A DNA stretch of 48,312 nucleotides from Nostoc sp. PA-18-2419 (GTDB taxonomy: Bacteria; Cyanobacteriota; Cyanobacteriia; Cyanobacteriales; Nostocaceae), in the NCBI RefSeq assembly GCF_005869855.1, contig NZ_SZNH01000004.1, positions 101,098 to 149,409 on the forward strand. The letters are read 5' to 3'. The notes beneath the pieces were generated by a model, which saw only the letters and a list, made by a program, of their open reading frames with translations, searched no databases and had not been told where the DNA came from. The translations under genes and the position numbers were made by a program. This document shows, piece by piece, positions 5,485 through 20,726 of this stretch. How positions within the stretch are numbered: position 1 is the stretch's first letter; the number at the start of each line of letters is the position of its first letter.

Positions 5485-5531
5485 ATTATTGCTGTTGAAT
5501 TCAGCAAACCCTTATCTTTTATTGTAGAAAA

Positions 5532-5795: not shown

Positions 5796-8340
5796 ATTTT
5801 TTCAATACTTCCAACGCTTCTTCGGCAGCTTGAAGCACATTAAAATCATTATGTTTATTTTCCACGACTGCCGATAGTCTACTCAATATTTCCTCAACGT
5901 CCTTGTCTAACTTGCCTAACTTGCCTAACTTGCCCAATGCTTCTGCGGTAGCTTGACGCACATTAGCATCATCATTTTTTTCTTCTAAGCATGACAATAG
6001 CCCATCAAATAGTCCGTCAAAGACTTTACCAAACTTGCCCAACGCTTCTGCGGCAGCTTGGCGCACATTAAAATCGTAGTCTTTATCTTGCAGACATAAC
6101 AATAGCTCCTTAAGTACTTGGTTAGAGACATCACCTAAGTTCACCAACGCCTTTAGTGCATTTTCATGCAAAGAAGCAGACTCATCTTTATCTTTCAGAA
6201 TTGTTAATAGCTCATCAACTAAATTCACAGAGGGACTGGGTAAGTTGTTGCATAACTTGCCTAATGCCACTAGGATATTACTACGTACATTAAGTTCGTC
6301 ATCTTTTAAGCGTAGCAATAGCTTATCAAGTACTTCCGTCGAGGTATTGCCTAAGTTGCCCAATGCTCTTGCAGCATCGCCACGCACAGTAATATCATCA
6401 ATTTCGAGGGCCATAAGGAGACCATCAAGGGCGTATTGGTCTGTTGCTGCCATCTTCTGTAATTGTTTAACAGCTCTGAGCTTATCTTTTAACTTTAGAG
6501 CTTTAAGCTGCTTAATCAGGTAACTAATATTTTGCTTCAGTTTTTGTTGTTTTTCTGCTTCTAAATTTATTCCTACAAGTTTGCCTAAATCCTCTGCCAC
6601 AAAATCTGGTATCTTTACCGCCACGCTTTTGGTAAGAGAGCATTCTCTGAGTGCTAGTAAAAAACCTTTAATTTCTTGCTGTGATTTATTTCTAGCTTCT
6701 GTCAAAAAATCACGCCATAATTGTTCCTTGTCGCTGTAATGCTTTATCAGGTATAGCCCAGCCAGATACTCAGCCAATGGATCTAGGGTAAAACGGATTT
6801 GCTCGTTACTGTATCCAATTGATTTAATGAGATGGAGAGTATTTTCAAAATAAACAAGGCACGCTCTTGCATTATTAAGGGAATCTTCTGTATTATCTTT
6901 CTTCAACTCTGTAAGAACAGAAGTCTTGTCTACAGGTTGTGCATTATAATGTTTTTCCAGACATTTCCACGCAATCAGTTTGGCATCCTCTTTGACAGTA
7001 GGATATTGATTCCTAGTTCTTATTTCACCCAGGCGATTAAGCTTCTCCAGATGGTCAATTATTAAGTCAGGAATGTTGTCAAGAGAGCGATTTTCACCTA
7101 GAAGATTTCTTTCTTTAATATTAATCATTCGCTCTGCATATAGTTTAGCCAGAAATACTATAATTTCTTGATCGCCCAATAATTTTGCAAGTTGGTTGCA
7201 TTCTTCCAGAAACTCTGTCTGTTCGTTCTCAAAAAGATGCCATTTTTGACGCTGTTTTAAGTACTGTTCGGTAAAATTGACCAACTTAACAGCACCAAAA
7301 GGCATAGTTTTTATCTTGAGGTCAATTCCTTGAAATGTTTCATCATTGCGTGAAGTAACAACTAAAGCATTAACGGCAAACTCTATGAGTTCAGGATTAA
7401 TCCGATCACGGGTTTCTCGACTCATTTCAGAGAAATGATCCACAATCAAGAAAATGCGGCGCTGTCGCAGGAGTTGTTCTACTAGCAATTCATCAACAAT
7501 CTTTTGTTCGCTGTCGCTTATCTCCTGGATTTTTCCAACAATTTCTTCCATCAGAGGCTTTATACCTTCTCCTGATTGTGATCTCAGTTCTTGTTCAATT
7601 AGAATTGGTAACATCAAGTGTTCAGTCAGTCTTTTATCTTTGTCTTCCATCATTGCCCATTTAGCAATCTGACAGGCAATCGTTGTTTTTCCCGTACCTC
7701 CCTCTCCCCAAATTAACAGTCGTACTCGCTTTTCTTGGGCAAAGGTTTCTCTCAAGGTTTCTGCTGTTAGTTCGTCTATTGGGTTATCATTTAATAGCAC
7801 TGAGAGAGAAACATAATCCTTGCGTTCATCAACAGTTTCATACGCCTGGAATTTATGATCGAATTTATCAATGTATTTTTTAACCCAAGCATCCAGTACT
7901 TTGGGACGGTACTTGAGCCAAATCACAAAACCAAGTGGGACTTTACACTCTTTTCCCAATAGTCTTTCTGGAATCGTGAATTCAGCAGGTAGCCATAGCA
8001 GTAACAGGGGGAAAAACTGAAGAACTCCCAAATACAAAATTACTACAACCCCAAGTGCAGCAGCTTTTACAGTCCAAGGTAGATCCTGCTTTTTTTCTTC
8101 ATCCGATTTTTCCCCTTCTTGTTGTTTTTTCTCTGGAGGTTGTGAATTTGTCTTTTTTACCTCACCAGATTTACTCGGTTGGGGTGTAGACTGCGCTGGT
8201 GTTTGAGCGTACAGCAGCCTATTATCTTGCTCAATATTTGCTTGCGCCCAATTATGACTTGTCAACAACAGGGGAAATGCAACTCCTAAAAGAGAAACTT
8301 TCAGCAATCCTAAAAAAGGCAGTCTTGCGTGCTTATCCAT
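5770..8340 (-). CDS. Membrane-anchored NACHT-HEAT STAND NTPase
   Basis: A signal-transduction ATPase of the STAND class. I start it at ATG 8340 rather than the TTG at 8358, because ATG gives a clean signal-like N-terminus (MDKHARLPFLGLLKVSLLG, hydrophobic core, then an AQA site). Next come a Pro/Lys/Glu-rich linker (about 45-88), a transmembrane helix (about 92-118), and the NACHT domain. The P-loop GEGGTGKTT is near residues 212-220 and the Walker B IFLIVDHF near 296-303. The C-terminal 220 residues are HEAT-like helical repeats (AALGxLG, VRQAAAEALGKFGK). The topology predicts a cytoplasmic ATPase anchored by one or two membrane segments. STAND proteins serve in signalling, cell death and phage defence; its specific role is unknown. 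It runs convergently into a damaged gene pair, suggesting acquisition by transfer. Confidence 0.85.
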   Translation of the reverse strand: MDKHARLPFLGLLKVSLLGVAFPLLLTSHNWAQANIEQDNRLLYAQTPAQSTPQPSKSGEVKKTNSQPPEKKQQEGEKSDEEKKQDLPWTVKAAALGVVVILYLGVLQFFPLLLLWLPAEFTIPERLLGKECKVPLGFVIWLKYRPKVLDAWVKKYIDKFDHKFQAYETVDERKDYVSLSVLLNDNPIDELTAETLRETFAQEKRVRLLIWGEGGTGKTTIACQIAKWAMMEDKDKRLTEHLMLPILIEQELRSQSGEGIKPLMEEIVGKIQEISDSEQKIVDELLVEQLLRQRRIFLIVDHFSEMSRETRDRINPELIEFAVNALVVTSRNDETFQGIDLKIKTMPFGAVKLVNFTEQYLKQRQKWHLFENEQTEFLEECNQLAKLLGDQEIIVFLAKLYAERMINIKERNLLGENRSLDNIPDLIIDHLEKLNRLGEIRTRNQYPTVKEDAKLIAWKCLEKHYNAQPVDKTSVLTELKKDNTEDSLNNARACLVYFENTLHLIKSIGYSNEQIRFTLDPLAEYLAGLYLIKHYSDKEQLWRDFLTEARNKSQQEIKGFLLALRECSLTKSVAVKIPDFVAEDLGKLVGINLEAEKQQKLKQNISYLIKQLKALKLKDKLRAVKQLQKMAATDQYALDGLLMALEIDDITVRGDAARALGNLGNTSTEVLDKLLLRLKDDELNVRSNILVALGKLCNNLPSPSVNLVDELLTILKDKDESASLHENALKALVNLGDVSNQVLKELLLCLQDKDYDFNVRQAAAEALGKFGKVFDGLFDGLLSCLEEKNDDANVRQATAEALGKLGKLGKLDKDVEEILSRLSAVVENKHNDFNVLQAAEEALEVLKKFNNSPENI

Positions 8341-8485
8341 AAATTCAACTGGGCGCAAGGGGAATATTACTGAGATTTTATGCTACTTTTCAGGTTTTGC
8401 CTAGATAAACTAGCACAGACGCGCTCAAGGCTTGTCGTTAAATATCTCGTTTTAACAGCTATAAAGAAACTACAAAAGCATTCAC

Positions 8486-8740
8486 TTAATTTCAGACTTT
8501 ACAACTACCCATTGCGTCACACCTGCCATTCCTCGCCAGCCCAAAAATTTACCAATAGGTTCCGCCCCCTGGATGGCAATACGAATCAAATCACCACCAA
8601 CTCATTCGTGCCATTGAAATAAAGTTTGTTCGCCCTCTACCGTCACTACATTTGCCACCAAACGTCCACCCGCTCGCAGTGCTTCCCAGCAAACATCAAA
8701 AAGTCCCGTTGCTGTCACCCCACGACCAATAAAAACAGTA
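8486..8740 (-). pseudogene. cobL: cobL 3' fragment (precorrin-6Y methyltransferase remnant)
   Basis: Read on the minus strand, this stretch matches the 3' end of the intact cobL at 30895-32109 (its bases about 31858-32109) almost base for base, covering roughly residues 322 to the C-terminus. Shared strings include GGGAAGCACTGCG and AACTTTATTTCAATGGCACG. An in-frame TGA at 8604-8602 replaces the Arg codon after CACGAA, so it cannot encode the full segment. Nothing of the upstream two thirds of the gene is present here; a separate middle piece lies at 32871-33000 on the other strand. This debris explains the lack of a real gene between the NACHT gene and the ABC binding protein. Confidence 0.85.
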
Positions 8741-8747
8741 AGTAGAC

Positions 8748-8840
8748 ATCCGGATTTCATATGATTGGAGTGAAGCCGCTAAATTTGTTGTAGAAATCGA
8801 TTCTTTACTAAGTGGAAAAGCTAGTGTCAGTAAGACATAA
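8748..8840 (+). pseudogene. Short gene 3' remnant, unidentified
   Basis: About 30 codons of plausible protein-like sequence (DWSEAAKFVVEIDSLLSGK) end at TAA 8838-8840, with no start or upstream domain. The 5' edge abuts the cobL fragment and a TAGACATCCGG string (8743-8753) that matches a terminal repeat of the MITE-like element at 29934. I do not recognise the parent family. It may simply be fortuitous coding-like DNA. Confidence 0.35.
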
Positions 8841-8849
8841 ATATGTCAA

Positions 8850-10163
8850 TTACCCTTTGACTTTTAGTAGTAGTCTAGTCTCATTGGCGGCTGATTGCAT
8901 TGCACTTTCAGGAGTCATGCGATTTGTGAGTGCAGCACTCAGATAACGTTGTAAAATATCAGATGCTTGAGCATATTGGGCAATGGACGGACGTAAAATG
9001 CTTTTATCAGCTATGTTGAGTATTTGAGGATAATGAGGATATTTGCTAACAACTTGTGGGTCTGTAAACAGCGAACGTTGGCTTGGTACAAAACCCGATT
9101 TAAAAATAAATTTGCGCTGTGTTTCTTCACTGGTAATGAATTGAATTGCTTTCCAAGCTTCTTGAGGATGTTTTGAAGATTTGCTAATTCCTAAACCAAA
9201 ACCACCTAAACATCCTCCTGGACTATTACCAGGAGTAGCAACCATTGGTTTCATAGCTATTTTATCTTTTACAGGGGAATCATCAGCATTAGCTAAAGGC
9301 CAAACATAAGGCCAACTGCGTAAAAATGCTGCTTGACCACTTTGAAATATGCGTCTTGTATCTTCTTCAATATATGTTGTGACTCCAGGCGGAGAAATTC
9401 CTTGTTCAATAGTATCTTTGAGAAAAGCGATCGCTTTTAATGTCTCAGGTCTATCTAACCCGACTTCTAAATTATTAGGATTCATCCAAAATCCACCGAA
9501 ACCTTGCAAGACTTCCAAAAACATGGCAACTAGTCCTTCAGACTGGCGACCTTGCCAAAGGTAACCCCACTTAACTTTTCTTTGCTCTTGTAATGACTGA
9601 GAAATTCTCAATAAATCTGCGAATGTTTCTGGTGGTTGAAAACCTGCTTGTTCGAGCAAGTCTTTACGGTAGTAGAGAACTCCAGCAGTAGCATACATGG
9701 GAATTCTGTAGAGTTTACCTTCGTAACGCCCGGCTTCTATATGTGCGGGAAAAAATTTTGCTAACTCTTCTTTTGGTAAGCGATCGCTCAAATCTAACAA
9801 CCAGTCAGCAGCAGCAAATTTAGGCGTCCAAATGACATCCATCAATACCATGTCATAGGGAGAATCTCCTAAGATATATGCTGAAGTCAGCAGGTCTTCC
9901 TGTAAATTTGATGTACTCGGCCCTTCAATAATATTGATATGAATGCCCGGATTTTTTGCTTCAAAATCTTTGATAATGCTTTGCTTCCAAAGTTCGCCAT
10001 CACTAGCATTCATCATCAGATTCAAGACTACTAGTTCCTCTGATATGGCTGGCGGGGTGGAAAGCAAAAAGATACCCAATACAACAGCAAAAAATATTCC
10101 TACACGCCATTTGAGTTGTTGGAAGATTTTATGCTGTTGTTTTGTTTGTTTGATGTGAGACAT
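8850..10163 (-). CDS. Sugar-type ABC transporter substrate-binding protein
   Basis: A family 1 extracellular solute-binding protein (UgpB/MalE-like), 437 residues from ATG 10163; a TTG nine bases upstream is less likely. The N-terminus is a long basic stretch followed by a hydrophobic core (VGIFFAVVLGIFLLS) and an AIS-EE junction, consistent with export or an uncleaved anchor. Family hallmarks include DFEAKNPGIHI, YDMVLMDVIWTP, GKLYRIPMYATAGVLYYRKDLL and the C-terminal EAWKAIQFITSEETQRKF block. It would deliver a carbohydrate or glycoside to a MalF/MalG-type permease. No permease or ATPase adjoins it here; a co-family permease lies at 33279-34187 on the opposite strand. The methyltransferase at 10226 lies 62 bp upstream on the same strand and may be co-transcribed. 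Confidence 0.88.
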   Translation of the reverse strand: MSHIKQTKQQHKIFQQLKWRVGIFFAVVLGIFLLSTPPAISEELVVLNLMMNASDGELWKQSIIKDFEAKNPGIHINIIEGPSTSNLQEDLLTSAYILGDSPYDMVLMDVIWTPKFAAADWLLDLSDRLPKEELAKFFPAHIEAGRYEGKLYRIPMYATAGVLYYRKDLLEQAGFQPPETFADLLRISQSLQEQRKVKWGYLWQGRQSEGLVAMFLEVLQGFGGFWMNPNNLEVGLDRPETLKAIAFLKDTIEQGISPPGVTTYIEEDTRRIFQSGQAAFLRSWPYVWPLANADDSPVKDKIAMKPMVATPGNSPGGCLGGFGLGISKSSKHPQEAWKAIQFITSEETQRKFIFKSGFVPSQRSLFTDPQVVSKYPHYPQILNIADKSILRPSIAQYAQASDILQRYLSAALTNRMTPESAMQSAANETRLLLKVKG

Positions 10164-10225
10164 TTTTAGCAAAACATCTTTGTTATCAAATTTGTGCTTC
10201 TGGATTCTTGATTCTTAAATTATAG

Positions 10226-11101
10226 CTACTCCCAGTAACCCCAAAAATCTTGATGTGTGACGTTACAACTAAGTTGGTTTTGAGCAATCATCTGTTGTTT
10301 TTTTTGTAACCAGGTGTTTAGCTCATGCTGTAAAGTTGCTTCTTCAAGAATTTCTGGAATTGATTCTTCCATAAACTTTAACATGAACTGAAGAAACACA
10401 GGATCGCTGCTACTAATTTCCCAGGGACTTTCTCCTTGTATGACCTTCATATCGATACGTTTCATTACCTCTCCGATAGAGTCACCACAGTCAGGCCCCA
10501 TTCCCCTGCCGAAGTCTTGAGGGCGCTGCATATGCTGATTGTAGTATTCTACAAAGGAAGAATCACCCTCGCTTTGAGGAATAAAATTTGTACTAGTATA
10601 GTTAACAGTAGCTAGAAGGGGTAATTGATACTTTTTTAAACATTCTAGTAGTGTTTGAAACTGCTTTTCGCTAAATAAATCGAACACTGCATTAGCCACA
10701 GCTAAGTCAAAAGTCTTTAAGTCTATGAGATTCTCCAGATCCAAAATAGAGCCGACAATTCTGTGAATAGTAATTTTACGGACTTCATTTTTTATGACTA
10801 ATATTGAGTCTTGCAATTGTGAATCATATCCATTTTCCTGTGCCCAGACGATTAGCCTATCAAAGCCAATTTCCAAATGTTCTTGATTTTGTTCAACTAA
10901 AAACCACTCCTGATCCTGAAAAATTTTACTCAAGTAATAGCGACAGTTAGCACCCGTACCAGCTCCCAAATCAACGATTTTAACGCTTTTGTGCTTTTTC
11001 AGGTATTGTTGGCAGCTTGCTTCCACAGTTGAGTTACGCCCCTTGGCATCATAAGGGATACGCAATTCTAGCCATTCGGCAAATTTCTGGTTTTTATTCA
11101 T
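10226..11101 (-). CDS. Class I SAM-dependent methyltransferase
   Basis: A 291-residue soluble enzyme. The Rossmann motif I, VDLGAGTGAN, is at residues 43-52; the acidic residue ending beta-2 is in WFLVEQN; motif IV-like FDLAVANAVFDLFS follows around residue 130. It probably transfers a methyl group to a small molecule: no tRNA, rRNA or DNA methylase motif (such as NPPY) was seen. The gene is the last of a minus-strand series with an FkbM methyltransferase, a glycosyltransferase and pterin/flavin-type enzymes, but 314 bp and a repeat hairpin separate it from the FkbM gene. Membership of the same pathway is therefore inferred. Substrate unknown. Confidence 0.8.
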   Translation of the reverse strand: MNKNQKFAEWLELRIPYDAKGRNSTVEASCQQYLKKHKSVKIVDLGAGTGANCRYYLSKIFQDQEWFLVEQNQEHLEIGFDRLIVWAQENGYDSQLQDSILVIKNEVRKITIHRIVGSILDLENLIDLKTFDLAVANAVFDLFSEKQFQTLLECLKKYQLPLLATVNYTSTNFIPQSEGDSSFVEYYNQHMQRPQDFGRGMGPDCGDSIGEVMKRIDMKVIQGESPWEISSSDPVFLQFMLKFMEESIPEILEEATLQHELNTWLQKKQQMIAQNQLSCNVTHQDFWGYWE

Positions 11102-11415
11102 TGGACTTCTTGCAAAGAAAAGAGAAAATTTCTACAAAAGTAGATTTAATACTTGCTGAATTTTGGCAACCATTAATTTACTGAAATAGAACTTACGTAA
11201 AAATTGCCGAAAACCTTAATTTATCGAACCGTCAAGACACCCTCCGGGTGTCTACGCCGGAAGCCGACGCTCAAACTTTTCGCAGCGTAACTCTGCGCTT
11301 GACTCTGCGCCCCTCTGCGTTTAAAAACATTATTTTTGTACCTCACTTAACTCCAATCGCTATAATTTATTTTTTAGAAGTCATTAACACTCTTCAGGGT
11401 AAAGTAACGGCTAGT
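11102..11415. repeat. Intergenic DNA with a Nostoc-type repeat hairpin
   Basis: No gene is supported in this gap. It holds a perfect 8-bp stem with a 3-base loop, AGACACCC-tcc-GGGTGTCT (11235-11253), followed by GC-rich repeat-like DNA (CGCCGGAAGCCGACGCTC, CTCTGCGCC runs) to about 11320, typical of dispersed repeats in Nostoc intergenic regions. The hairpin lies downstream of the FkbM gene on the minus strand and could also act as a terminator, although no T-run follows on that strand. Confidence 0.55.
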
Positions 11416-12186
11416 TTACACTGTATCGAGACTAAGCAGACAACGTGCATATACATCACCAGAGTTTGCATCAACAGGCAAACTTTTAAGTTGAGCGACC
11501 ATTTCCTGAGAATTAAGCCAGTTAGCTGATTGCAATTGATACGATTCACCAAATTTTGCGGGTTTCCAGTTGAATTCATAAGGCCCCAAAGAATTCAATT
11601 GTTCAATGCAAGCTAGAGCAATGTTTATTGCACTCGGAGTGTATTCAAACGAAAGGGCACGAATAGGTTGCGACAAGCCACGCAGAACTTCTAGTTCGTG
11701 ACCCTCAACATCAATCTTGCAGAAAGCGGGCTTACCATATTGAGCGATGAGGCTATCAATAGTTGTTACCGAAACAGACACGGTTGTATCCCAGCGCACA
11801 TGAGCAAAAGAATCAACCTGTTGTACAGCTTCCATCCAATCACGGGAGAGGGTGGTTACAGTTGGGGTACGTTGGCTCACCAATAAGTCTTGCGTCCCAG
11901 GAACTAAGCCAACAGCTTGTTCAATAAGGGTTATCCGGGGATTATTGCTGTACCAGCGTTTCAACAGTTGCATACACTGAGGTTGAGGCTCGATGCCAAT
12001 AACATGGGCATCAAGGCGAGACAAGGCAAGAAGATGATTGCCAACATGGGAACCAATGTCAAAACAAAGGTCGCCTGGTTGGACAAACAGTGAATAAAAG
12101 CCGGATAACTGACGGATGCGAAAGGGAATACCGTAGTACATTATTAATGAGCGAAGAATCCCCACCTGCTGCGATAAAGATGACAT
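11416..12186 (-). CDS. FkbM family methyltransferase
   Basis: A 256-residue FkbM-type SAM-dependent methyltransferase, a family that usually O-methylates sugars or polyketide-like small molecules. Motif I is FDIGSHVGN (residues 42-50), followed by VIGIEPQP and the diagnostic IDVEGHE (158-164). The ATG at 12186 has an AGGA Shine-Dalgarno about ten bases upstream on the minus strand. It lies 63 bp downstream of the GT4 gene in the same orientation, so a glycosylated product that is then methylated is the natural reading of the pair. The acceptor is unknown. Confidence 0.85.
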   Translation of the reverse strand: MSSLSQQVGILRSLIMYYGIPFRIRQLSGFYSLFVQPGDLCFDIGSHVGNHLLALSRLDAHVIGIEPQPQCMQLLKRWYSNNPRITLIEQAVGLVPGTQDLLVSQRTPTVTTLSRDWMEAVQQVDSFAHVRWDTTVSVSVTTIDSLIAQYGKPAFCKIDVEGHELEVLRGLSQPIRALSFEYTPSAINIALACIEQLNSLGPYEFNWKPAKFGESYQLQSANWLNSQEMVAQLKSLPVDANSGDVYARCLLSLDTV

Positions 12187-12249
12187 ATTAATTTTTTCCT
12201 GCTGATGATTCAGTAGTTCTAGCGATTGAAGAAATATTAAGATTACTAA

Positions 12250-13296
12250 CTAGTATGTAAATACTTGTAAAAAATCTCGATAACTTTGCTCCCAAGTATT
12301 AAAGGATAGATTCGCAGTGCGATTCAAAGCTTCTTTGCCTAACTGATTAAGTTGATTACGATCTGTAAGCAATTTTTTGAGTGCCATGAAAAATTGTTCG
12401 TGCTTGCCTAACTCAATCAGTATCCCATTGACTCCATCCTCAATCCAGTCTGCAATTGCCCCAGTTGCATAAGCTAATACTGGTAGCCCGTTAGCAACTG
12501 CTTCTGCAGTGGACATAGAATAACTTTCATAGGTAGATGCGGAGATATAAAGGTCAGATTGAGACAACAACTCCAACATAGTCTTCTGAGGAACACGGCC
12601 ATGAACAATGACGGCATCTTGCAGTCCCGCACGCTTGATTAAGGCGAGAGTTTTATCTTTGTAAGCTTCTTCTTCGCAATCACCAATCAAATGGAGCCTA
12701 AAATTCTTTGTTTCCATCTGGGCTAACATTTCTACTAATTCAAGTTGCCCTTTGCGTCGATAGAAAGTTCCGATGCTAATGAGAGTTATCTGCTCTTGCG
12801 ATCGCTGTTTGAGATTAGGCAGGTAAAGCGCCTGATCGATACCTGGTGATGCTACCACGATTTTGTCTGTTTCGATCCCACCACTTAAGATATAATTGCG
12901 CAATTGGAAACTAGGAACGATAATACCCTTCATCGCTTTTAACCATCGCGCTTCATCACTCCAGAGAGCTTTCTTTTCCTGAGTCGAGTAGTAGGTATTC
13001 AATGACTCAAGATGGTGGAGCATCAAGTAAGTTCGTTGAGCATAGGGAAGAAATTCATTCAAGGAATCATTGAACTCGGAAATTGTCAAGTAGAGTGCAT
13101 CAATCACAAGGATGCAATCAGAAGGTAAAGCACTCAATTGTTCAAGCAGCCCAGAAACAGATCCATCTAAGGGATAATATAAATTCTCTCCTTTACCTTC
13201 CTGCTCTAAGCGCTTGACAATTTCTACATTGTAGAGTGAACCTCCTGAGGTGAAACTTAGTTTCGGCTGAATAAAATAGATCGTATTTGAGTTCAT
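12250..13296 (-). CDS. Family 4 glycosyltransferase
   Basis: A 348-residue GT-B fold enzyme. The N-terminal acceptor domain begins IYFIQPKLSFTSGGS, and the C-terminal nucleotide-sugar domain carries ISIGTFYRRKGQLELV, LHLIGDCEEE, VIVHGRV and the ESYSMSTAEA retaining-GT4 motif (E-x7-E, near residues 255-263). It has no signal peptide and is probably cytosolic. The start ATG overlaps the stop of the PTPS-like gene by four bases (ATGA, 13293-13296), which indicates translational coupling and so a shared pathway. Donor and acceptor cannot be read from sequence. Pteridine glycosyltransferases are known in cyanobacteria, so a pterin- or flavin-like acceptor is an attractive inference only. Confidence 0.85.
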   Translation of the reverse strand: MNSNTIYFIQPKLSFTSGGSLYNVEIVKRLEQEGKGENLYYPLDGSVSGLLEQLSALPSDCILVIDALYLTISEFNDSLNEFLPYAQRTYLMLHHLESLNTYYSTQEKKALWSDEARWLKAMKGIIVPSFQLRNYILSGGIETDKIVVASPGIDQALYLPNLKQRSQEQITLISIGTFYRRKGQLELVEMLAQMETKNFRLHLIGDCEEEAYKDKTLALIKRAGLQDAVIVHGRVPQKTMLELLSQSDLYISASTYESYSMSTAEAVANGLPVLAYATGAIADWIEDGVNGILIELGKHEQFFMALKKLLTDRNQLNQLGKEALNRTANLSFNTWEQSYRDFLQVFTY

Positions 13297-13670
13297 ACCT
13301 CTGCTTCATAGCTTCCCCAAGCGATATGGCTTTCCTCCAGGGTGATTTTCAGAGAGCCTTTGAAAAAGGAACTTACGTGTTTGCTAATTTGCTGGTGGAT
13401 ATAATAACCTATGTATTCTGTGGTTGTATTTATCCCCTGAAATTGTTCGAGAGTATCTAGATTTTGGTAATTTATAGGTTCTAGAACTTCTTTGAGAATT
13501 GCGATCGCCTGACCGATATCAATCACTAAGCCATCTTTATCCAATGATGGTACTTTAAATTCAGCTGTGATTATAAAGGTTGCTCCGTGCAGCTTTTGAG
13601 CGGGGCCAAAAATTTCCCCTTGGAAGCTATGGGCAATCATGATGTGGTCTTTTACTGCAACAGAAAACAT
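13293..13670 (-). CDS. PTPS/QueD-fold protein with degenerate active site
   Basis: A 125-residue member of the 6-pyruvoyl-tetrahydropterin synthase / 6-carboxytetrahydropterin synthase superfamily by its overall pattern: HSF near the N-terminus (His14), LHGATF (His28), GLVIDIGQAIAILKEVLEPI, and a C-terminal LEESHIAWGSYE that keeps the pterin-anchoring Glu. The canonical CxxLHGH is changed. The Cys four residues before His28 is Ala24, the second zinc His is Ala30, and the LDHxxLN catalytic His region reads INYQNLD. Ordinary PTPS or QueD chemistry therefore looks impossible. It may bind a pterin, catalyse something else, or be structural. It is five bases downstream of the dehydrogenase and overlaps the GT4 gene by ATGA. 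Confidence 0.8.
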   Translation of the reverse strand: MFSVAVKDHIMIAHSFQGEIFGPAQKLHGATFIITAEFKVPSLDKDGLVIDIGQAIAILKEVLEPINYQNLDTLEQFQGINTTTEYIGYYIHQQISKHVSSFFKGSLKITLEESHIAWGSYEAEV

Positions 13671-13675
13671 GATTT

Positions 13676-14656
13676 TTAATACTCAACTAACGGCGAAACT
13701 GGCTGTACTTGACGCTGATATAACAGTGACATAAATTCGGGCAAGTCTTTAAAAGCAATCACAGGCTCTAGGAGAATATCTACAGCCGCATCTCCAAGCA
13801 ATTGCAAAACCCGTTCTTTGCGCTGACGATAGTCAATTAAGTTTCGCATGGGTTTGGCGATCGCCGAAACTTGAGAAGCGATAATTTGTTTGCGCTGATA
13901 ATGAAACGAACCACCCAATTGCAAGGAAACTGATTGCGTTCCGTACCAACTCAGTTCGATACAGCGACCTTCAAAAGTCAGGGCATCAATCGCACTTTGA
14001 AGTCCACAAGCAGAAGCGCTGGTATGAAAGACGATATTGTAATTGTCTTCTTTGAAGTCGGTTGCTAAGCGAGAATTTTGCAGCCAAGGTAGTTGTTCTA
14101 GGTATTGAATTCGCTGCTTATCCTGTTCTAAAAAGTCTGCCCCAATACCATACTCTTTACTGAGAACAAAGCTAATCAGAATACCAACAATACCTCCACC
14201 AACAATTAAGATCCGAGCGTCCTGACTAACTTCGGCATCCCAAACTGCATTCAGGGCTGTTTCTGTGTTGGGAATTAAAGTTGCCCGTTTACTAGGTAAC
14301 CAATCTGGCAATTCTAATGCATCAGAACTCTCCACCACGACTCTCGATTGATGGGGATGCATAACGAAAAATCGTTTACCCTGATTGGAGGCTTCATCAG
14401 CTTGACCGACAAGACTGTAGCCGTACTTTAAAGGTAAGGCAAAACTGCCTTCCATATACCAACAGCGCATTGTTTCCCAACACTCTTCGGGGACTTTTGC
14501 TAGACCTACCAGGCGTTCTGTCCCCGGACTAATGCCACTGTAGAGAGTTTCCAAAAACAGAGGCTCTTTAGGCAACGCCGTGACTGAAGTTTCTCTAATT
14601 TCACCAACGCTTGGAGAGACTAGCCAGTAAGCATAAGCTTGAGAATTTGTAGACAT
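13676..14656 (-). CDS. Medium-chain dehydrogenase/reductase (zinc-site-less type)
   Basis: A 326-residue MDR superfamily oxidoreductase. The N-terminal GroES-like half has YSGISPGTE (residues 39-47), where zinc alcohol dehydrogenases have a catalytic Cys (GxCGTD). The cofactor half has ILIVGGGIVGILI (about 149-161). The SGIS(A/P)GTE variant is known in the BchC-like subgroup of MDR enzymes. No structural zinc Cys cluster is visible. It lies five bases upstream of the PTPS-like gene and 27 bases downstream of the GTP cyclohydrolase fusion, all co-directional, so it probably reduces or oxidises an intermediate of that pathway. Specific substrate unknown. Confidence 0.8.
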   Translation of the reverse strand: MSTNSQAYAYWLVSPSVGEIRETSVTALPKEPLFLETLYSGISPGTERLVGLAKVPEECWETMRCWYMEGSFALPLKYGYSLVGQADEASNQGKRFFVMHPHQSRVVVESSDALELPDWLPSKRATLIPNTETALNAVWDAEVSQDARILIVGGGIVGILISFVLSKEYGIGADFLEQDKQRIQYLEQLPWLQNSRLATDFKEDNYNIVFHTSASACGLQSAIDALTFEGRCIELSWYGTQSVSLQLGGSFHYQRKQIIASQVSAIAKPMRNLIDYRQRKERVLQLLGDAAVDILLEPVIAFKDLPEFMSLLYQRQVQPVSPLVEY

Positions 14657-14683
14657 CTTTAACCAGCAGCCTTAACGAGCAAA

Positions 14684-16414
14684 TTAAATGCGTGACTCCT
14701 TATCTAGAAGTAATTCCACTAGAATTTCTCCATCGAGATCGAAGTGTTTCATTTGAAAGCGCAGTCCTTGGTCGATGGAGTCTATAACTGGAAGGGTGAA
14801 ACTCGACCGTCCCGAACCCAAAATCAAAGGAGAAAAATGGAGATGCAGTAACTCTATGCAATCAGCTTGCAAGAAATAGGAAACGGTTTGTCCTCCACCT
14901 TCCAAAAAAATACTAGAAATGCCATTTTCGTATAAAGCGTTTAAAATCTCCGAAGGTTCTAAAACTGTATTTTTCTGAGAACCTGTTTTAGGAGAAATCG
15001 GAATCTCCAAAATTTTGTCTTTTACTGCTTGTGGTACGACTCGATGCTGCTTTCCTTGAGGATATAACACAATAACTTTTTCGTGGACTGCCATCATCTG
15101 CAAATCATCCAGCTTCAAATCGCTTTCTCCTTCAATAATCACAGGAGTTGGATGCTTGCCAGCTACTAAACGAACCGTTAGTTTAGGATTGTCGAGTGTT
15201 GCTGTGAGTGCGCCTACCATAACGGCATCATGAAGGGCACGCAGACGATGAGCATGTTTCAAGTTAGCTTCATTGCTCAGCCATTGAGAGTTGCCATTGA
15301 TTGCTGCAATTCTGCCGTCTAGAGATTGTGCTAGGTGAGCCATCAGAAATGGACGCTTTTCTAGATAAGCTGCTCGTTGAGCAATTAAGAGCCTGACATA
15401 TAGAGAAAAAGTTTGCCATCCATTGCTGTGCCACATTCCTTTAAAACATTGGTCATCTTGCACAAAATTGGTCTTCAAAGGCGAGCCGCTTTTGAATACA
15501 ATGGCAGATTCTACTCGAGAAAATAGTTGATTGGCAAAATTTAAGTTTTCACAAAAATCATTTGTCAAATCGATGATAATCAAGAAATCACTTTCCGGAA
15601 TTTGCGGTATCTTTTCGGCAGAAAGTTTTTGGAAACTCCACGGACTTTGAGCATTCCCAAAAAAAGCCCAATACTCATTCTTTTGGGGAGCTTCATTTTT
15701 CATTGTCTGTTTGCATTCCAGCAATGCCGACCAGATATCATCTAAATGATCGTCAATTTTAAAGGCATTTCTGGCTATAGATTGGCGATTTTTGAATTCC
15801 AGAAGATGCCCCAGCTTCTTGGTTTTAGTTGTCAAATAATTAAAATTGTAGTCATTGGGTTCAATGGCTAAAGGAATTCGTTCGACTACTTCAATCCCAT
15901 AGTTTTGCAAACGAGCAATTTTGCGAGGATTATTAGTAATTAAGCGAATTTCCTTCAACCCTAAATCCTTGAGGATTTGCGCCGCCATACTGTAGTCTCG
16001 GAGGTCAGCAGAAAATCCCAGACGTTCATTTGCTTCTACTGTATCTAGTCCCAAATCTTGCAAAGAATAGGCTCTCACCTTATTCAACAAACCAATGCCT
16101 CTTCCCTCTTGTGGCAAATAAATTATCACTCCTTGACCTGCGGTTTCAATCATCCTCAGTGCCGTTTGCAACTGGCCTCCACAATCACAACGTAGAGAAC
16201 CTAAAGCATCGCCGGTTAAGCATTCGGAGTGTATTCTTACCATTACCGGGTTATCGAAGTTTTCTACTTCTCCCTTAATGATGGCGATATTCTCTGAATC
16301 GTCCAGAGCATTACGATAGCCATATATTTTAAATGTACCGAACTCACTAGGTAACTTGGCGATCGCTACAGTTTCGGTAAAAGCCATTTCAGTAATCGGT
16401 CTTTGCTTGCTCAT
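14684..16414 (-). CDS. GTP cyclohydrolase II - RibD-type reductase fusion
   Basis: A 576-residue bifunctional protein. Residues about 20-210 are a complete GTP cyclohydrolase II (RibA): zinc Cys65, Cys76 and Cys78 in [19 protein letters not shown], the [17 protein letters not shown] loop, and [11 protein letters not shown]. Residues about 355-572 are the RibD C-terminal reductase ([45 protein letters not shown]). The middle 140 residues match nothing I recognise. The DHBP synthase (RibB) and the RibD deaminase domain are absent. GTP cyclohydrolase II yields the 2,5-diamino-6-ribosylamino-pyrimidinone phosphate, which fungal and archaeal reductases reduce before deamination. The fusion could thus make the ribityl compound directly. 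It heads a minus-strand gene series (MDR, PTPS-like, GT4, FkbM), which argues for special metabolism rather than house-keeping riboflavin synthesis. Confidence 0.88.
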
Positions 16415-17407
16415 AAGTTTATGACAATCTTCTCAATCTTTTCTTACTTTCAAGTAGACGTTAAACGTTCTCAAGATTTAAATCTTAACTCTAAATTTCA
16501 ACCAAATTGACTCGCTCATTACCAAGCAGATCGCAAAGGAGCGATGAGTATTTAAGTATATTATAAAAACGGATTATTATTAAACATAAATTAATTTAGC
16601 TTGAAATTTTAAAACAGTTTTCAGCTTAAATTCTTGAATAAATTTATTACTTTGATTTATTTTTATAAGAATGTAGAACATTTATATTGAGTATTTTCCT
16701 GATTGACAAAATATGTTCTCTAGAATATTTTACAGATAGTCTTTGACACTTACCAAACTAAGCTGCCAATTTTAAATCTCCTCACAGCTTACGTAGTCAG
16801 TGTCAATAAAAAATGTCTCAAAACCCCTGATGATTGTTTTGGGTGTGGCAAAAAACAGGCAAACAACATCTGTACTTAGTCAAATTATCATGAAACAGCT
16901 ACAAATGAAATCTTTAAAGATTAAGAAATGTATAGTTACTTAATGCAAATTTATCCGAACTAAGTCAAAACTTACGGACAGGGAAGGAAAAATCAAACCA
17001 CACAGAAGCCAGAAGACGCCCAATAATAAGAGTTTCAGACAGTTATATGCCTAAATTCTATAAGCAAGTCGGTGTGGAAAAACAAAACTATATAAAAATA
17101 AATAAATATGTATAATGCATCTATCAAAATAACAAACAACATATATGAGGTCTGTTTTCAGAGGATTTCTGACTCATAAGTCAGATACAATTCTTTTAAA
17201 TTTGAGAACTGGGGAAAACAAAGTACAACTAAGAGGACATAGTATTTTTTCAAAAATACCTCAAAAATGAACTACATATATCATTACTCAAAAGTTAAAG
17301 TCATAAATCATTTGTCAATAAGTAATAATGCTTAAATATTGATATTCTCTTGTATCTTTTGTCTTTTTACTTTTGCCTTCTTGTAATATTGTGTTTGTAA
17401 ATAGCTT
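16415..17407. other. AT-rich 1-kb intergenic region, no gene
   Basis: No convincing coding sequence on either strand. It must carry the promoter of the minus-strand fusion gene (start 16414) and the 3' end of the ureG transcript. A nested inverted repeat lies at 16743-16806 and a perfect 7-bp hairpin (TCTGACT-cata-AGTCAGA) at 17168-17185. No FMN riboswitch consensus was found upstream of the GTP cyclohydrolase fusion. The rest is featureless A/T-rich DNA to my reading. Confidence 0.5.
16743..16806. promoter_or_regulatory. Nested two-part inverted repeat
   Basis: An outer 8-bp perfect arm (TTGACACT 16743-16750 with AGTGTCAA 16799-16806) encloses an inner 7-bp perfect arm (TAAGCTG 16759-16765 with CAGCTTA 16785-16791). 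The two are separated by an asymmetric 8/7-base internal loop, and the apical loop is 19 bases. This could fold as a stem-internal loop-stem RNA in either direction. It sits about 330 bp upstream of the GTP cyclohydrolase fusion. Whether it is an RNA, an operator or chance is not settled. Confidence 0.4.
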
Positions 17408-18010
17408 CTAACAGATATTCGTGCAGACAAAGTTAATTACATCTATAAGCCCTGACTGAGTTTTCAAATTAGTAAAAATAAAAGGTTTATCGCCGCGCAT
17501 TTTTTTAGCATCTCGTTCCATAACAGTTAAATCGGCGCCGACATAAGGTGCAAGGTCGATTTTATTAATCACCAACAAATCAGATTTAGTAATACCAGGG
17601 CCACCCTTGCGAGGAATTTTATCACCAGCTGCAACATCGATGACATAAATCGTCAAATCTACCAATTCTGGACTAAAGGTAGCAGCCAAATTATCACCGC
17701 CACTTTCCAAAAATACTAAATCCAAATCCGTAAAACGTTCTTCTAACTGTTCAATTGCTGCTAAATTCATCGAAGCATCTTCGCGGATAGCAGTATGAGG
17801 ACAGCCGCCAGTCTCTACACCCAAAATGCGATCGCTTGCTAAGGCTTGAGAACGCACTAAAAATTGAGCATCTTCTTGAGTATAAATATCATTCGTCACC
17901 ACCGCCAGCTGATACTGCTGGCGCAATTTCTTGCACAAAGCATCCACTAAAGCCGTCTTCCCCGAACCCACGGGCCCAGCAACACCTACTCTAAATGCGT
18001 TGTTTGTCAT
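17408..18010 (-). CDS. ureG: Urease accessory GTPase UreG
   Basis: A 200-residue SIMIBI-class GTPase that, with UreD/UreF and the nickel donor UreE, loads Ni into urease in the cytosol. The P-loop [13 protein letters not shown] is at residues 9-21. [17 protein letters not shown] carries the Ni-binding CPH motif; [13 protein letters not shown] and the guanine-specificity NKIDLAP follow. Length is normal for the family. The ATG at 18010 lies inside the last copy of a heptamer tandem repeat (ATGACAA x3 on the minus strand), and only this copy is in frame. The gene is 198 bp downstream of ureF, a gap filled with low-complexity DNA, unlike the tight ureE-ureF junction. The ureABC and ureD genes are not in the window. 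Confidence 0.97.
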
Positions 18011-18024
18011 TTGTCATTTGTCAT
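18004..18024. repeat. STRR heptamer tandem repeat over the ureG start
   Basis: Three perfect head-to-tail copies of TTGTCAT (plus strand), i.e. ATGACAA on the coding strand of ureG. Short tandemly repeated repetitive sequences of this heptamer type are a known trait of heterocystous cyanobacteria. The copies place three ATGs, each 7 bases apart and so in three frames, at the ureG initiation site. Confidence 0.85.
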
Positions 18025-18044
18025 TTGTTGTTGGTTATTAGGCA

Positions 18045-18205
18045 AACAGGGAGTGTGGGAGGATGGGGAACAAATGCAGGTGTGGGAGGAAAAGGAGGAT
18101 GGAGAAGAAATCTTGCCCCCTTCTCTCCCCACATTCCCCCATCCCCTCTCTCGATACTCTCCCATTCCCCCTCTCTCCCCACACTTCCTCATCTCTCCAT
18201 CTCCC
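18045..18205. repeat. Purine/pyrimidine-skewed low-complexity spacer
   Basis: Between ureF and ureG the plus strand switches from a G-rich half (GTGTGGGAGGATGGGG, 18050s, and GGAGGAAAAGGAGGATGG, 18080s) to a C-rich half (repeated CTCTCCCCAC / CCCCCTCTC) up to 18205. The two halves can pair imperfectly into a long hairpin. Overlapping open frames across it are low-complexity artefacts. Such spacers are common in Nostoc intergenic DNA. Confidence 0.6.
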
Positions 18206-18208
18206 CAT

Positions 18209-18901
18209 TTAACTCCTAAACAACCTTGTATACTGCGTTTGATGCTGCATACTTGCTAGGGATAAACCCCAACTCCAACAGCCGAGTTGTTCATCTTCTA
18301 ACGTGAGAATTTCCAATGCTGTAGTACTGATTAATAATTGCAAATCAAGTAATAACTGCTGTCCTGCTGTTTGTCCCAAGGGGATAAGTTTGATGCCAGC
18401 TGTAATTAAATTACTTGCCCAACTGTGCAAATATGCTAATAATCCGGCTTTGATATTAATTTGCCAATGAGCAAGGGCGATGCCAAAAGCGATCGCATAA
18501 TTGCAAGGATTACCTACAGCCTTGGTTATAGGTTCAATTTGCGGTTCTAGTTTACCAAGTAATTGGATGAGCGATCGCCCCATTTGCCAACTAGAGGCGC
18601 GTAATTCTTCTGTTTCTCTAGCAGCAGATAACCAGAGATTCCAGGAGCATAAAGACTCGACATCACCGATTTTTGCAGATTTATCAGCCCGTACCATTAC
18701 CGCCGCCTCTAGCCGAATTGCTCCGTAAATTAATTGTGCTTCTAACCAATGCTTGAGAGCTACTTGGTTGGCGATCGTACCATTTTCCACTAATGTTTCC
18801 AAGCCTTCAGAATAACTATATGCTCCCACAGGCAAAGCAGGGCTAGCAAGCTGTAAAATATGCAAAAAATGGCTATCAGTGAGCGTGATGGTGTTGTCCA
18901 T
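18209..18901 (-). CDS. ureF: Urease accessory protein UreF
   Basis: A 230-residue all-alpha protein that acts with UreG and UreD in nickel insertion into urease. Typical UreF sequence is visible: [21 protein letters not shown]-type N-terminus (here [19 protein letters not shown], residues about 15-33), [17 protein letters not shown], and the C-terminal [21 protein letters not shown]. The start at ATG 18901 overlaps the end of ureE by 26 bp, indicating a tight operon ureE-ureF-(spacer)-ureG. No odd residues were seen. Confidence 0.96.
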
Positions 18902-19322
18902 AAGCTCCCAATTCTGGCTGAAACGGTAAAATTTCTTCTTTAACTTCTAATCCCAATTGTTCCAACATCGAGCGTAGAACCGAATCTGAAGACAAGCGTA
19001 AATAACTTGGGGTAATTTCTACAGGTACATGGCGATTTCCCAAATGATATGCTGCTCTGAGTAATAAAAGTGGTGTTTCGGCAAAGGCAGTCATCACTAG
19101 TTCTGGTTTAGCAGTAATTCTAATTAAACTGTTATGGGTTTCTTCTTGGAGAATATCGCCATCGTGTAAAACAGTTCCTCTAGGTAAATGCAAAAATACA
19201 ACTTTTCCCTCTTCGGTTTCAAAGCGATGACGACTGCGGGTACGTTCTTCTGCTGTTAGCGCCAGAGTTAAGCTGACTGCTGTATCGTAATTGGGTGGTT
19301 TGAGTTGGGTAAATGTCAGCAT
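18876..19322 (-). CDS. ureE: Urease accessory protein / nickel chaperone UreE
   Basis: A 148-residue nickel metallochaperone, start chosen at ATG 19322 instead of the adjacent TTG 19325. The N-terminal domain carries [18 protein letters not shown] and [16 protein letters not shown]. The C-terminal metal-binding domain has [17 protein letters not shown] with the Ni-coordinating His. A short His tail (GQHHHAH) ends the protein, much shorter than the poly-His tail of Klebsiella UreE. It leads the minus-strand ureEFG group, with a 26-bp overlap into ureF. Confidence 0.95.
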
Positions 19323-19528
19323 CAAAGTTTCGCCCGATCTAAAACCATCGACTCATGAAATGAGAAAAAACACAAGGGCACAGGGGACTGGGGAAGATGA
19401 GGAAAATAATACTATTCCTAAAAATCTTTACAAGACATAAATCTAAGGTAGGGGTGTACATCTGTACGCCCATACATATCTATCTATATGAGCTATTTTG
19501 TGAAATAGTATCAAGTAGATTTAGAACT

Positions 19529-19612
19529 TGAAATATTAACCTCAAAGATTCGTTCACCCAGTTCAAATACTCGTTAATCTAGTTCAAAGGTGGATTCATC
19601 CACTTCAAATAC
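19529..19612. repeat. 21-bp period tandem repeat
   Basis: Four degenerate 21-bp units beginning at 19529, 19550, 19571 and 19592, each with a TCAAA core (for example TCGTTAATCTAGTTCAAAGG). The 13-mer ATACTCGTTAATC at 19567-19579 also occurs, inverted, in the 42-bp repeat array at 40408, so the two arrays belong to one family. The period of 21 is three heptads. The array lies in the ureE / phosphatase gap; no gene is supported in 19323-19768. Confidence 0.7.
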
Positions 19613-19672
19613 TCAAAATCCTTCTCATCTCCTTCCTTTTAATTAAACAGATTAGAGTAATATAGCAACGGT

Positions 19673-19697
19673 GGTATTATTGCATCAAAATGATACC
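19673..19697. promoter_or_regulatory. Operator-like inverted repeat upstream of the phosphatase gene
   Basis: GGTATTATT and AATGATACC form a 9-bp inverted repeat (one mismatch) around a 7-base spacer, 72 bp upstream of the ATG at 19769. The size fits a dimeric repressor site. It does not match an NtcA box or a Fur consensus that I can recognise. The regulator is unknown. Confidence 0.4.
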
Positions 19698-19768
19698 GTA
19701 ATTTTGTCTGCATTTAAAATCCTATTACCCTGCTAATAGAAGATTATTTCTCAAAGGAGTTTGCTGCA

Positions 19769-20638
19769 ATGTCCACAACACCGACTACTCGATTAATTTT
19801 AGAGACTTTACTTCCCCATCTGAAAGTAGCAGCAGCCTATGCCCGTTTTCTGCAACCAAAGATTGCTGCACTTCCGGCTAAAGAACAAGGAAAAAACTTT
19901 TTTGCGGCTGCACTTACTGATGCAGATGTGGCGATTCAAAATATGGTAGAAGTAGTACTGCTGGGTAGTTTTCCAGAGATTCGCTTTTTTGGTGAAGAGT
20001 ATGAAAGTTCTCGAAACACTAAGTATTTTCGTGCTACTGAACTTGGTTTGCAAGGTGATTATTTAGTTACACTCGACCCAATTGATGGCACAAAGTTTTA
20101 CATGGATGGGCACTCTAATTACCAAATTATTCTTAGTATTCTAAATGCAGATGATTTTGAGGCAGTAGTGGCAATTTCTCCTGGTGAAAATGTTTATTTT
20201 TATGCTTTTCGAGGTGAAGGTACTTTTAAAGGAACCCTACAAATGAATTTAGAAGCCTGCACTTTGTTGCAGATTACATCACCCAAACCTGCTATCTTAT
20301 TGGGATGGGGAATGAATGCGATCGCACCTCTACTAAAAGATAATTATCAAGTAATCGATATTGCCACTGATTATTCTAGTGAGATTCAAATTCCTAATCT
20401 CAATGGTATTCTTAGTGGTGATTTGAGTGGAGCAGTAATCAGAGCAGGCAAATTTATTGATGGTGCTGCACTGGCTTTTTTGGCAAAAGAAGCTGGCTAT
20501 CTTGTCACTACTCTAGACGGTTCGACTTTACCGCCACTCTATACTTGTAAAAACTATAGCCTGCCAGGATTAATCGTAGCTGCGTCAAAATCCGTTCATC
20601 AAGATTTGCTGTCAGCGACGCAAAGCTTACTTGTTTGA
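19769..20638 (+). CDS. Inositol monophosphatase family protein
   Basis: A 289-residue Mg-dependent phosphatase of the IMPase/CysQ/FBPase fold. The metal ligands are visible: GEE (75-77), DPIDGT (103-108), and a later Asp in FIDGAALAFLAKEAG. A strong Shine-Dalgarno, AAAGGAG, ends nine bases before ATG 19769, so the start is secure. The gene stands alone between ureE (divergent) and the convergent sensor kinase. IMPase relatives hydrolyse inositol phosphates, PAP or histidinol phosphate; the sequence between motifs (VTLDPIDGTKFYMDGHSNYQ) does not decide among them. Cytosolic. Confidence 0.88.
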   Translation: MSTTPTTRLILETLLPHLKVAAAYARFLQPKIAALPAKEQGKNFFAAALTDADVAIQNMVEVVLLGSFPEIRFFGEEYESSRNTKYFRATELGLQGDYLVTLDPIDGTKFYMDGHSNYQIILSILNADDFEAVVAISPGENVYFYAFRGEGTFKGTLQMNLEACTLLQITSPKPAILLGWGMNAIAPLLKDNYQVIDIATDYSSEIQIPNLNGILSGDLSGAVIRAGKFIDGAALAFLAKEAGYLVTTLDGSTLPPLYTCKNYSLPGLIVAASKSVHQDLLSATQSLLV

Positions 20639-20726
20639 AGGCGTATCCGATCACCTTTGATGGAGAAAAACTGAAAAATAAAAATTAAAAATTAATATTC
20701 AATCTACTTGCTTTAGCTTTGATTCT

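What the first reader, a model, noticed from the sequence alone, without database searches (positions are those of the whole stretch)
10226..16414. Candidate GTP-derived small-molecule pathway: GCHII-reductase, MDR, PTPS-like, GT4, FkbM and MTase
Five co-directional genes (four with 4- to 27-bp junctions or ATGA overlap) encode a GTP cyclohydrolase II-reductase, a zinc-less dehydrogenase, a PTPS-fold protein, a GT4 glycosyltransferase and an FkbM methyltransferase; a second methyltransferase follows. The chemistry reads as GTP opened to a diamino-pyrimidinone, reduced to a ribityl derivative, oxidised or reduced, then glycosylated and methylated. I do not recall a described pathway of this composition in cyanobacteria. 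Ordinary riboflavin synthesis needs a deaminase and RibB, which are missing. This is the strongest candidate for an undescribed system here.
Basis: inference. Interest (0 to 1): 0.78.

Follow-up and report, generated by a model that had tools for sequence, protein, structure and literature searches.

The report
Widespread uncharacterised GTP-to-pterin-like gene cluster
Six neighbouring genes in a Nostoc-type cyanobacterium look like the local form of an uncharacterised pathway, shared by many unrelated bacteria and salt-loving archaea, that opens GTP and builds a sugar-decorated, pterin-like small molecule; its product is still unknown.

Summary
The window encodes a GTP cyclohydrolase II–RibD_C fusion, a dehydrogenase (MDR), a PTPS-fold protein, a GT4, an FkbM and a class I methyltransferase. 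The PTPS-fold protein has the FGPAQ signature of 'PTPS-IV'; its only PDB match is SCO6650 (3d7j). GT4, methyltransferase, RibA and RibD_C recur; 28 control stretches lack the set. GT4–GCHII fusions occur in planctomycetes, and some haloarchaea use GCH III instead of GCHII. No RibD deaminase motif was seen, so the 2-amino group is probably kept and riboflavin is unlikely. FkbM is optional; the 'second' methyltransferase is core. Best reading: GTP to a diaminopyrimidine, on to a glycosylated, methylated pteridine-like product. Against a simple scheme: 9 of 11 clusters whose GCHII lost the catalytic Tyr (with creatininase) have no RibD_C nearby. In print: the PTPS-IV name and its PF00925/PF01872 neighbourhood, miscalled FolE2, plus an unpublished F420 claim that fits poorly here. 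I found no described product or pathway.

The parts
14684..16414 (-). GTP cyclohydrolase II (residues 17-181) fused to a RibD_C pyrimidine reductase (355-561); no deaminase domain; catalytic Tyr kept (Y116; alignment to the E. coli enzyme)
13676..14656 (-). MDR-superfamily dehydrogenase, polyol/alcohol-dehydrogenase fold, no conserved Cys that could form the usual zinc site
13293..13670 (-). PTPS-IV (FGPAQ) T-fold protein; catalytic Cys, one zinc His and catalytic His replaced; pterin-anchoring Glu kept
   Evidence: signature from PMC5445326
12250..13296 (-). GT4 glycosyltransferase; fused to GCHII in two planctomycete clusters
11416..12186 (-). FkbM-family methyltransferase; optional tailoring gene, absent from the G167 cassette, same subfamily in 15 of 89 cluster loci (window counted)
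10226..11101 (-). class I SAM methyltransferase, core member of the cassette

Best explanation
The cassette is a biosynthetic pathway from GTP to a glycosylated, methylated pteridine-like (2-amino-4-oxo) small molecule. Shown by sequence: GCHII with catalytic Tyr and zinc Cys motif, RibD_C reductase domain without deaminase, a dehydrogenase of polyol/alcohol-dehydrogenase fold, a T-fold protein that lost the PTPS catalytic residues but keeps the pterin-anchoring Glu, a GT4 and a methyltransferase, conserved as a unit. Inferred: GCHII makes 2,5-diamino-6-ribosylamino-4(3H)-pyrimidinone 5'-phosphate; RibD_C reduces it to the ribityl form; the MDR oxidises a chain hydroxyl (C2' most likely) to a ketone; the 5-amino group closes on it, held by PTPS-IV, to give a dihydropterin phosphate (reduction plus oxidation being the net Amadori step of GCH I); after loss of phosphate GT4 adds a sugar and the methyltransferase(s) a methyl. 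In other taxa a CDP-alcohol phosphotransferase or an MdoH-like enzyme, with a flippase-like protein, suggests a membrane or exported product.
For: Conserved unit: of 80 non-seed cluster loci, mdr 74, gt4 69, mt 59, ribD_C 47, ribA 42 at 60 bits; in 28 control stretches mdr, ptps, gt4 and mt 0, ribD and ribA once each, at the genome's own riboflavin loci included on purpose. Nine phyla, plus haloarchaea. Fusions: GT4+GCHII (L036), GT4+GCHII+HAD phosphatase (L035), GCHII+RibD_C (window). First-step enzyme replaced by GCH IIa/III next to the MDR in 4 of 6 haloarchaeal loci viewed (HMM-tested in one). No RibD deaminase motif (a regular expression, one positive control) in 52 RibD_C hits or any ORF of the 89 loci. 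PTPS-IV, 52 proteins aligned: Cys to Ala 51, zinc His to Ala 51, Glu113 and Glu85 52. MDR model best matches alcohol/polyol dehydrogenases.
Against: No metabolite, no assay. RibD_C is absent from 9 of 11 loci with non-Tyr GCHII, and I saw none annotated in the haloarchaeal loci, so reduction then re-oxidation is not shown to be universal; an unlinked reductase is neither shown nor excluded. The MDR lacks the usual zinc ligands, so oxidation of a secondary alcohol is not certain. 12 of 50 full-length loci have neither GCHII nor RibD_C within 10 kb; some Streptomyces carry PTPS-IV alone. No CDP-alcohol, flippase-like or MdoH-like match was found in the window stretch 1001-30000.
Confidence: 0.55

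Rival explanations
1. The product stays monocyclic: GCHII and RibD_C make a diamino-ribitylamino-pyrimidinone, PTPS-IV only binds or dephosphorylates it, and GT4, MDR and methyltransferases decorate the polyol chain.
For: PTPS-IV has lost the zinc site and catalytic residues, so it need not do pterin chemistry; a polyol-type dehydrogenase fold fits the ribityl chain.
Against: Two Glu residues of the pterin pocket are invariant in the 52 proteins aligned (their role is established knowledge, not tested here); 5,6-diaminopyrimidines with a side-chain ketone close readily (recalled chemistry).
Confidence: 0.2
2. The variant without RibD_C shows the real logic: a formamidopyrimidine made by GCH III or a Tyr-less GCHII is deformylated and rearranges directly, and RibD_C in the other branch serves a different redox state of the same product.
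For: A creatininase-family gene of 285 bits or more to the seeds lies in 11 of 11 loci with non-Tyr GCHII (one of them, L027, is itself the seed) against 0 of 35 with Tyr; RibD_C in 2 of 11 against 33 of 35. A creatininase-family formamidase acting on this intermediate is shown in Sinorhizobium (PMC9478397, abstract and passages).
Against: The 11 non-Tyr enzymes form one clade, so this is one event, not 11; six Tyr loci carry more distant creatininases; none of three scanned reaches the ArfB cut-off. The genomes without RibD_C in the cluster hold other RibD_C proteins of 66-105 bits, the range (86-114) in which the reductases beside RibA in Micromonosporaceae clusters score with the same alignment, so a reductase in trans is possible.
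Confidence: 0.1
3. The genes supply precursors for flavin or F420 (the 2016 review says that PTPS-IV serves F420, citing unpublished work).
For: GCHII and RibD_C are riboflavin enzymes; statement in PMC5041015 (section read).
Against: No deaminase motif; own genome has no CofD hit; of 31 of the 80 genomes that I searched, 10 have CofD over the cut-off and 21 do not; a second GCHII and a RibD lie elsewhere in the own genome.
Confidence: 0.05
4. A queuosine, folate or biopterin operon with a misread PTPS.
For: Deposited annotation calls most of the viewed relatives 6-carboxytetrahydropterin synthase.
Against: Signature residues of PTPS-I, II and III are absent; the QueD model scores 34.2 against a cut-off of 89.25.
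Confidence: 0.03
5. Chance adjacency of unrelated genes.
For: FkbM is an insertion relative to G167.
Against: Recurrence across phyla and the control; gene fusions.
Confidence: 0.01

Closest known systems
PTPS-IV subfamily of COG0720 and its neighbourhood (AGeNNT paper PMC5445326; COG0720 review PMC5041015)
   Same: FGPAQ signature; PF00925 and PF01872 neighbours
   Different: The sections I read give no pathway; the first calls PF00925 GCH I/FolE2 although Pfam names it GTP cyclohydrolase II, the second assigns F420; they name no MDR, GT4, methyltransferase, archaeal GCH III or fusions
SCO6650 of Streptomyces coelicolor (PDB 3d7j)
   Same: Only PDB match of the window PTPS at E 0.001 (2e-35), same FGPAQ motif and HGA in the printed alignment
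   Different: Deposited as uncharacterised; that it lacks zinc and PTPS activity but keeps a pterin site is recalled from its structure paper, which was not held
Riboflavin pathway (RibA, RibD)
   Same: Ring-opening enzyme and pyrimidine reductase domain
   Different: No deaminase; no RibB, lumazine or riboflavin synthase among the six proteins; dehydrogenase, GT4 and methyltransferase instead
Archaeal ArfA/ArfB and bacterial BrbF formamidase route
   Same: GCH III and creatininase-family proteins appear in some clusters and would give the same diaminopyrimidinone
   Different: There they feed riboflavin; three cluster creatininases scanned fall below the ArfB model cut-off
Toxoflavin pathway (recalled)
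   Same: GCHII, RibD-type enzyme and methyltransferase leading to a non-flavin product
   Different: RibD deaminase kept there; no PTPS, MDR or GT4 (recalled, not tested)
Cyanobacterial pterin glycosides made from GCH I and PTPS-II (recalled; papers seen only in a search listing)
   Same: Glycosylated pterin as end product would look alike
   Different: Different first enzyme, no RibD_C; other PTPS subfamily

Membership tests
PTPS-IV (COG0720) | FGPAQ signature | tested here: met
   F21-Q25 in the window; A24 in 51 of 52, Q25 in 50 of 52 aligned proteins
PTPS-IV (COG0720) | neighbourhood with PF00925 and PF01872 | tested here: met
   (window); 33 of 89 loci, window counted, have Tyr-GCHII plus RibD_C
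PTPS-I/II/III (QueD, BH4, folate enzymes) | catalytic Cys or Glu motif with HGH zinc site and catalytic His | tested here: not met
   window has Ala24, HGA and Tyr68 at these positions
Riboflavin pathway | diaminohydroxyphosphoribosylaminopyrimidine deaminase | tested here: not met
   no Pfam deaminase domain in the window fusion; no motif in 52 RibD_C hits nor in any ORF of the 89 loci, one positive control
Riboflavin pathway | DHBP synthase, lumazine synthase, riboflavin synthase | tested here: not met
   no such domain in the six window proteins; elsewhere a weak DHBP remnant in L053 ribA; not scanned for in the other loci
GTP cyclohydrolase II | TIGR00505 cut-off, zinc Cys triad, catalytic Tyr | tested here: met
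   267.1 bits over 205.85; Cys motif and Tyr116
F420 biosynthesis | CofD in the genome | tested here: not met
   own genome 0 matches; 10 of 31 cluster genomes searched are over the cut-off
BchC (TIGR01202) | equivalog cut-off | tested here: not met
   41 bits against 291.25
Zinc-dependent MDR polyol dehydrogenases | fold | tested here: met
Zinc-dependent MDR polyol dehydrogenases | catalytic zinc ligands (Cys/His/Glu or Cys) | tested here: not met
   no invariant Cys; the commonest Cys columns are 27 of 41 (residue 321) and 24 of 41 (residue 98), neither Cys in the window protein; geometry not examined
ArfB/BrbF FAPy formamidases (other clusters) | NF033501 cut-off | tested here: not met
   20.4-37 bits against 180 for three cluster creatininases
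Toxoflavin-type azapteridine pathway | full toxA-E set | not tested
   named from memory only

The most novel reading that the evidence does not exclude
A pterin pathway that does not use GTP cyclohydrolase I, spread over at least nine bacterial phyla and haloarchaea: GCHII (or GCH III, or a Tyr-less GCHII with a creatininase-type deformylase) opens GTP, a reduction and an oxidation or a direct rearrangement replace the GCH I Amadori step, the zinc-less T-fold PTPS-IV closes or shapes the second ring, and GT4, methyltransferase and, in many taxa, CDP-alcohol phosphotransferase plus a flippase-like protein make a glycosylated, possibly membrane-bound pterin.
Probability: 0.3. Interest if true: 0.88.

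Novelty: new variant of a known kind. Interest (0 to 1): 0.7.

Why it matters
PTPS-IV genes are numerous (561 sequences in PMC5445326; 584 matching stretches here) and go under labels such as '6-carboxytetrahydropterin synthase' and 'RibD family protein'. If the cluster makes a pterin without GCH I, it would be an additional enzymatic entry into pteridines, would give a function to a PTPS-fold group whose structure has been deposited (SCO6650, 3d7j), and would point to a conserved, possibly membrane-associated redox or light-absorbing metabolite. The five-gene cyanobacterial cassette is compact and easy to test in E. coli.

Tried and rejected
Riboflavin supply: rejected for lack of deaminase and because the genome has its own genes. 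F420: rejected as a general role. Queuosine/folate/BH4: rejected by residues. An independent-origins argument from the Tyr/creatininase link was dropped after the tree put all 11 non-Tyr enzymes in one clade; the row 'ownRibBA' in that tree was a wrongly cut frame and is ignored. L072, whose alignment did not cover the site sensibly, was dropped from the 47 rows before the 46-row count. On re-checking, my first reading (that the RibD_C-less genomes hold no cluster-type reductase) did not stand: Micromonosporaceae-type cluster reductases score 86-114 bits with the same alignment, like the 66-105 bits found there; rival 2 was lowered from 0.12 to 0.10 for this reason. An empty-site test around the cassette was given up because the flanking solute-binding gene is a second, 65%-identical copy with no clear orthologous flank. 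A search for further recurrent cluster genes gave only groups of 2-3 loci, and mostly shadow ORFs. No PTPS-IV match in 50,697 phage records. Paper searches for the gene set found no description; Phillips 2012, the SCO6650 structure paper and the S. coelicolor GCHII paper are not held and are recalled only. No structure named BchC is among the 50 rows, which says nothing either way.
Full report
What is there. The six genes of the finding are real and co-directional. The first is a fusion of a complete GTP cyclohydrolase II (TIGR00505 267.1 bits, cut-off 205.85) with a RibD_C reductase domain. The GCHII domain aligns to E. coli RibA over its length, with zinc cysteines and catalytic Tyr kept. 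Among the ORFs of the 89 loci compared, the linker between the two domains has relatives only in the cyanobacterial copies. No deaminase domain is present. The genome (7.6 Mb) has another GCHII gene and a RibD with the deaminase motif elsewhere, so the cassette is probably not needed for riboflavin.

It is a unit. In another genome of the same genus (G167, locus L116) ribA-RibD_C, MDR, PTPS, GT4 and methyltransferase stand in one tight run, the GT4 and methyltransferase overlapping by 4 bp; outside this run the 19-kb stretch shows no DNA match to window 4001-22000. FkbM is missing there, so FkbM looks like an addition in the window lineage and its close relative Nostoc sp. S4 (L033). Members of the same FkbM subfamily (38-44% identity in the ten non-Nostoc rows shown) recur in clusters elsewhere (15 of 89 loci counting the window and L033). 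All genes show purifying selection (dN/dS 0.09-0.31). In cyanobacteria the cassette is rare: PTPS-IV in 2 of 386 sampled genomes, the MDR clearly in 2 of 244 (eleven further weak hits at E 1e-4 to 1e-3 were not counted). The MDR tree puts the cyanobacterial copies as one tight clade beside Planctomycetota (support 100/99), with a warning about long branches; gain by transfer is likely but not proven.

It is widespread. tblastn of the MDR and the PTPS against 72,556 plasmid records hit 28 and 20 records. Of 13 annotated neighbourhoods viewed eleven repeat most of the set; Natrarchaeobaculum (L157) shows only GCH IIa and MDR, and in Streptomyces anthocyanicus (L113) PTPS-IV stands alone. The best 80 loci were kept: Pseudomonadota 39, Actinomycetota 27, Bacteroidota 4, Planctomycetota 3, Cyanobacteriota 2, Acidobacteriota 2, Spirochaetota, Gemmatimonadota and Myxococcota one each. 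The 80 are those most like the window, so the sample is not even, and several are cut by contig ends. In the 80, at 60 bits or more to seed proteins: MDR 74, GT4 69, methyltransferase 59, RibD_C 47, RibA 42, CDP-alcohol phosphotransferase 36, LPG-synthase-TM 28, sulfatase-like 20, creatininase 18, MdoH-like 17, FkbM 12, cytochrome b561 7. In 28 control stretches of 20 kb from the window genome (12) and from 16 cluster-bearing genomes there were none of these, except RibD and RibA once each at the genome's own riboflavin loci, which I had included on purpose. In 12 of 50 full-length loci neither GCHII nor RibD_C lies within 10 kb (L072, with a doubtful RibA hit, counted among the 12). CDP-alcohol phosphotransferase and MdoH-like genes tend to exclude each other (2 with both, 32 and 12 with one, 17 with neither, of 63 loci), and the former goes with the flippase-like protein.

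A second form of the first step. At the site of the catalytic Tyr, 35 of 46 cluster GCHIIs (window counted, L072 dropped) have Tyr and 11 have Met, His or Cys. All 11 are actinobacterial, and all 11 loci hold a creatininase-family gene of 285-416 bits to the seeds (529 in L027, which is itself a seed), against 0 of 35 with Tyr. Six Tyr loci have more distant creatininases of 79-102 bits, and the seeds were Streptomyces and Haloarcula, which favours actinobacterial relatives. I recall, without having been able to read it, that a Tyr-to-Met GCHII of S. coelicolor stops at the formamidopyrimidine; a creatininase-family formamidase acting on exactly that compound is shown for Sinorhizobium (PMC9478397, abstract and passages). 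The 11 enzymes are one clade, so this is one evolutionary event. Against a uniform pathway: these loci mostly lack RibD_C (2 of 11 have it, against 33 of 35 with Tyr). In the eight such genomes that I searched (the ninth locus, L027, is a plasmid record) the best RibD_C proteins reach 66-105 bits. Proteobacterial cluster reductases score above 230 with the same alignment, but those beside RibA in Micromonosporaceae score only 86-114, so this neither shows nor excludes a reductase encoded elsewhere. Either such a reductase serves, or this branch needs no reduction.

Mechanism. I commit to a GTP-derived, glycosylated and methylated pteridine-like product. The most economical route in the window form is ring opening, reduction of C1' to the ribityl chain, oxidation of C2' by the MDR, and closure with the 5-amino group to a dihydropterin, which equals the Amadori step of GCH I. 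Ring closure, the position oxidised, the sugar and the methyl site are inference. The lipid-type genes of other taxa suggest export or membrane attachment; none was found in window 1001-30000.

What is known. The group is 'PTPS-IV' in the AGeNNT paper (PMC5445326, passages and section 19 read): 561 sequences, signature FGPAQ, neighbours PF00925 and PF01872, with PF00925 called GCH I/FolE2, which does not fit Pfam's own name for it. A review (PMC5041015, passages and section 7 read) says that PTPS-IV serves F420, citing unpublished work; the window genome has no CofD match and 10 of the 31 cluster genomes that I searched (of 80) have it over the cut-off. A 2026 review of pterin signalling, seen only in the passages found, starts pterin synthesis from GCH I (PMC13259868). 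Ten searches found no described pathway; preprints and most subscription papers are not in that library.

Verdict. Not an artefact and not ordinary: a conserved, uncharacterised cluster built from known enzyme families. Product unknown; interest 0.7.

Noticed in passing
L034 (uncultured Scytonema) 6042-7332: The GT4 gene of this copy matches the window only in scattered pieces, most of them some kb beyond the PTPS gene; it looks interrupted or rearranged, while ribA-RibD_C, MDR and PTPS read through.
   Followed up: no
L113 10001-10426; also L056, L057, L067, L080: Some Streptomyces carry PTPS-IV without MDR, GT4 or RibA in the stretch held (in L113 beside a sigma factor and a MEKHLA-domain protein), which suggests a second, detached use of this fold.
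   Followed up: no
L061, L068, L071, L097, L100, L104: Proteobacterial and acidobacterial clusters with a normal Tyr GCHII carry a more distant creatininase-family gene, whose role is unexplained.
   Followed up: partly
L028, L156, L159 upstream of GTP cyclohydrolase IIa: Haloarcula clusters have a Gfo/Idh/MocA oxidoreductase and a CDP-alcohol phosphotransferase just before GCH IIa; the oxidoreductase could stand in for the missing RibD_C.
   Followed up: no
window 8850-10172: The sugar-binding-type ABC solute-binding gene beside the cassette is a second copy in the genome (65% identical to one on another contig), so the flank itself is accessory.
   Followed up: partly
window 17408-19325: Urease accessory-like genes (UreG/UreF/UreE by reading of the translations, not scanned) lie upstream of the cassette, and a large HEAT-repeat/NTPase-like gene at 5770-8358 lies beyond the solute-binding gene.
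   Followed up: no
genome G000 contig C21 19862-21049: Three PTPS domains are fused in one 429-aa open frame; domains 2 and 3 keep the Cys and HGH residues, domain 1 does not.
   Followed up: no
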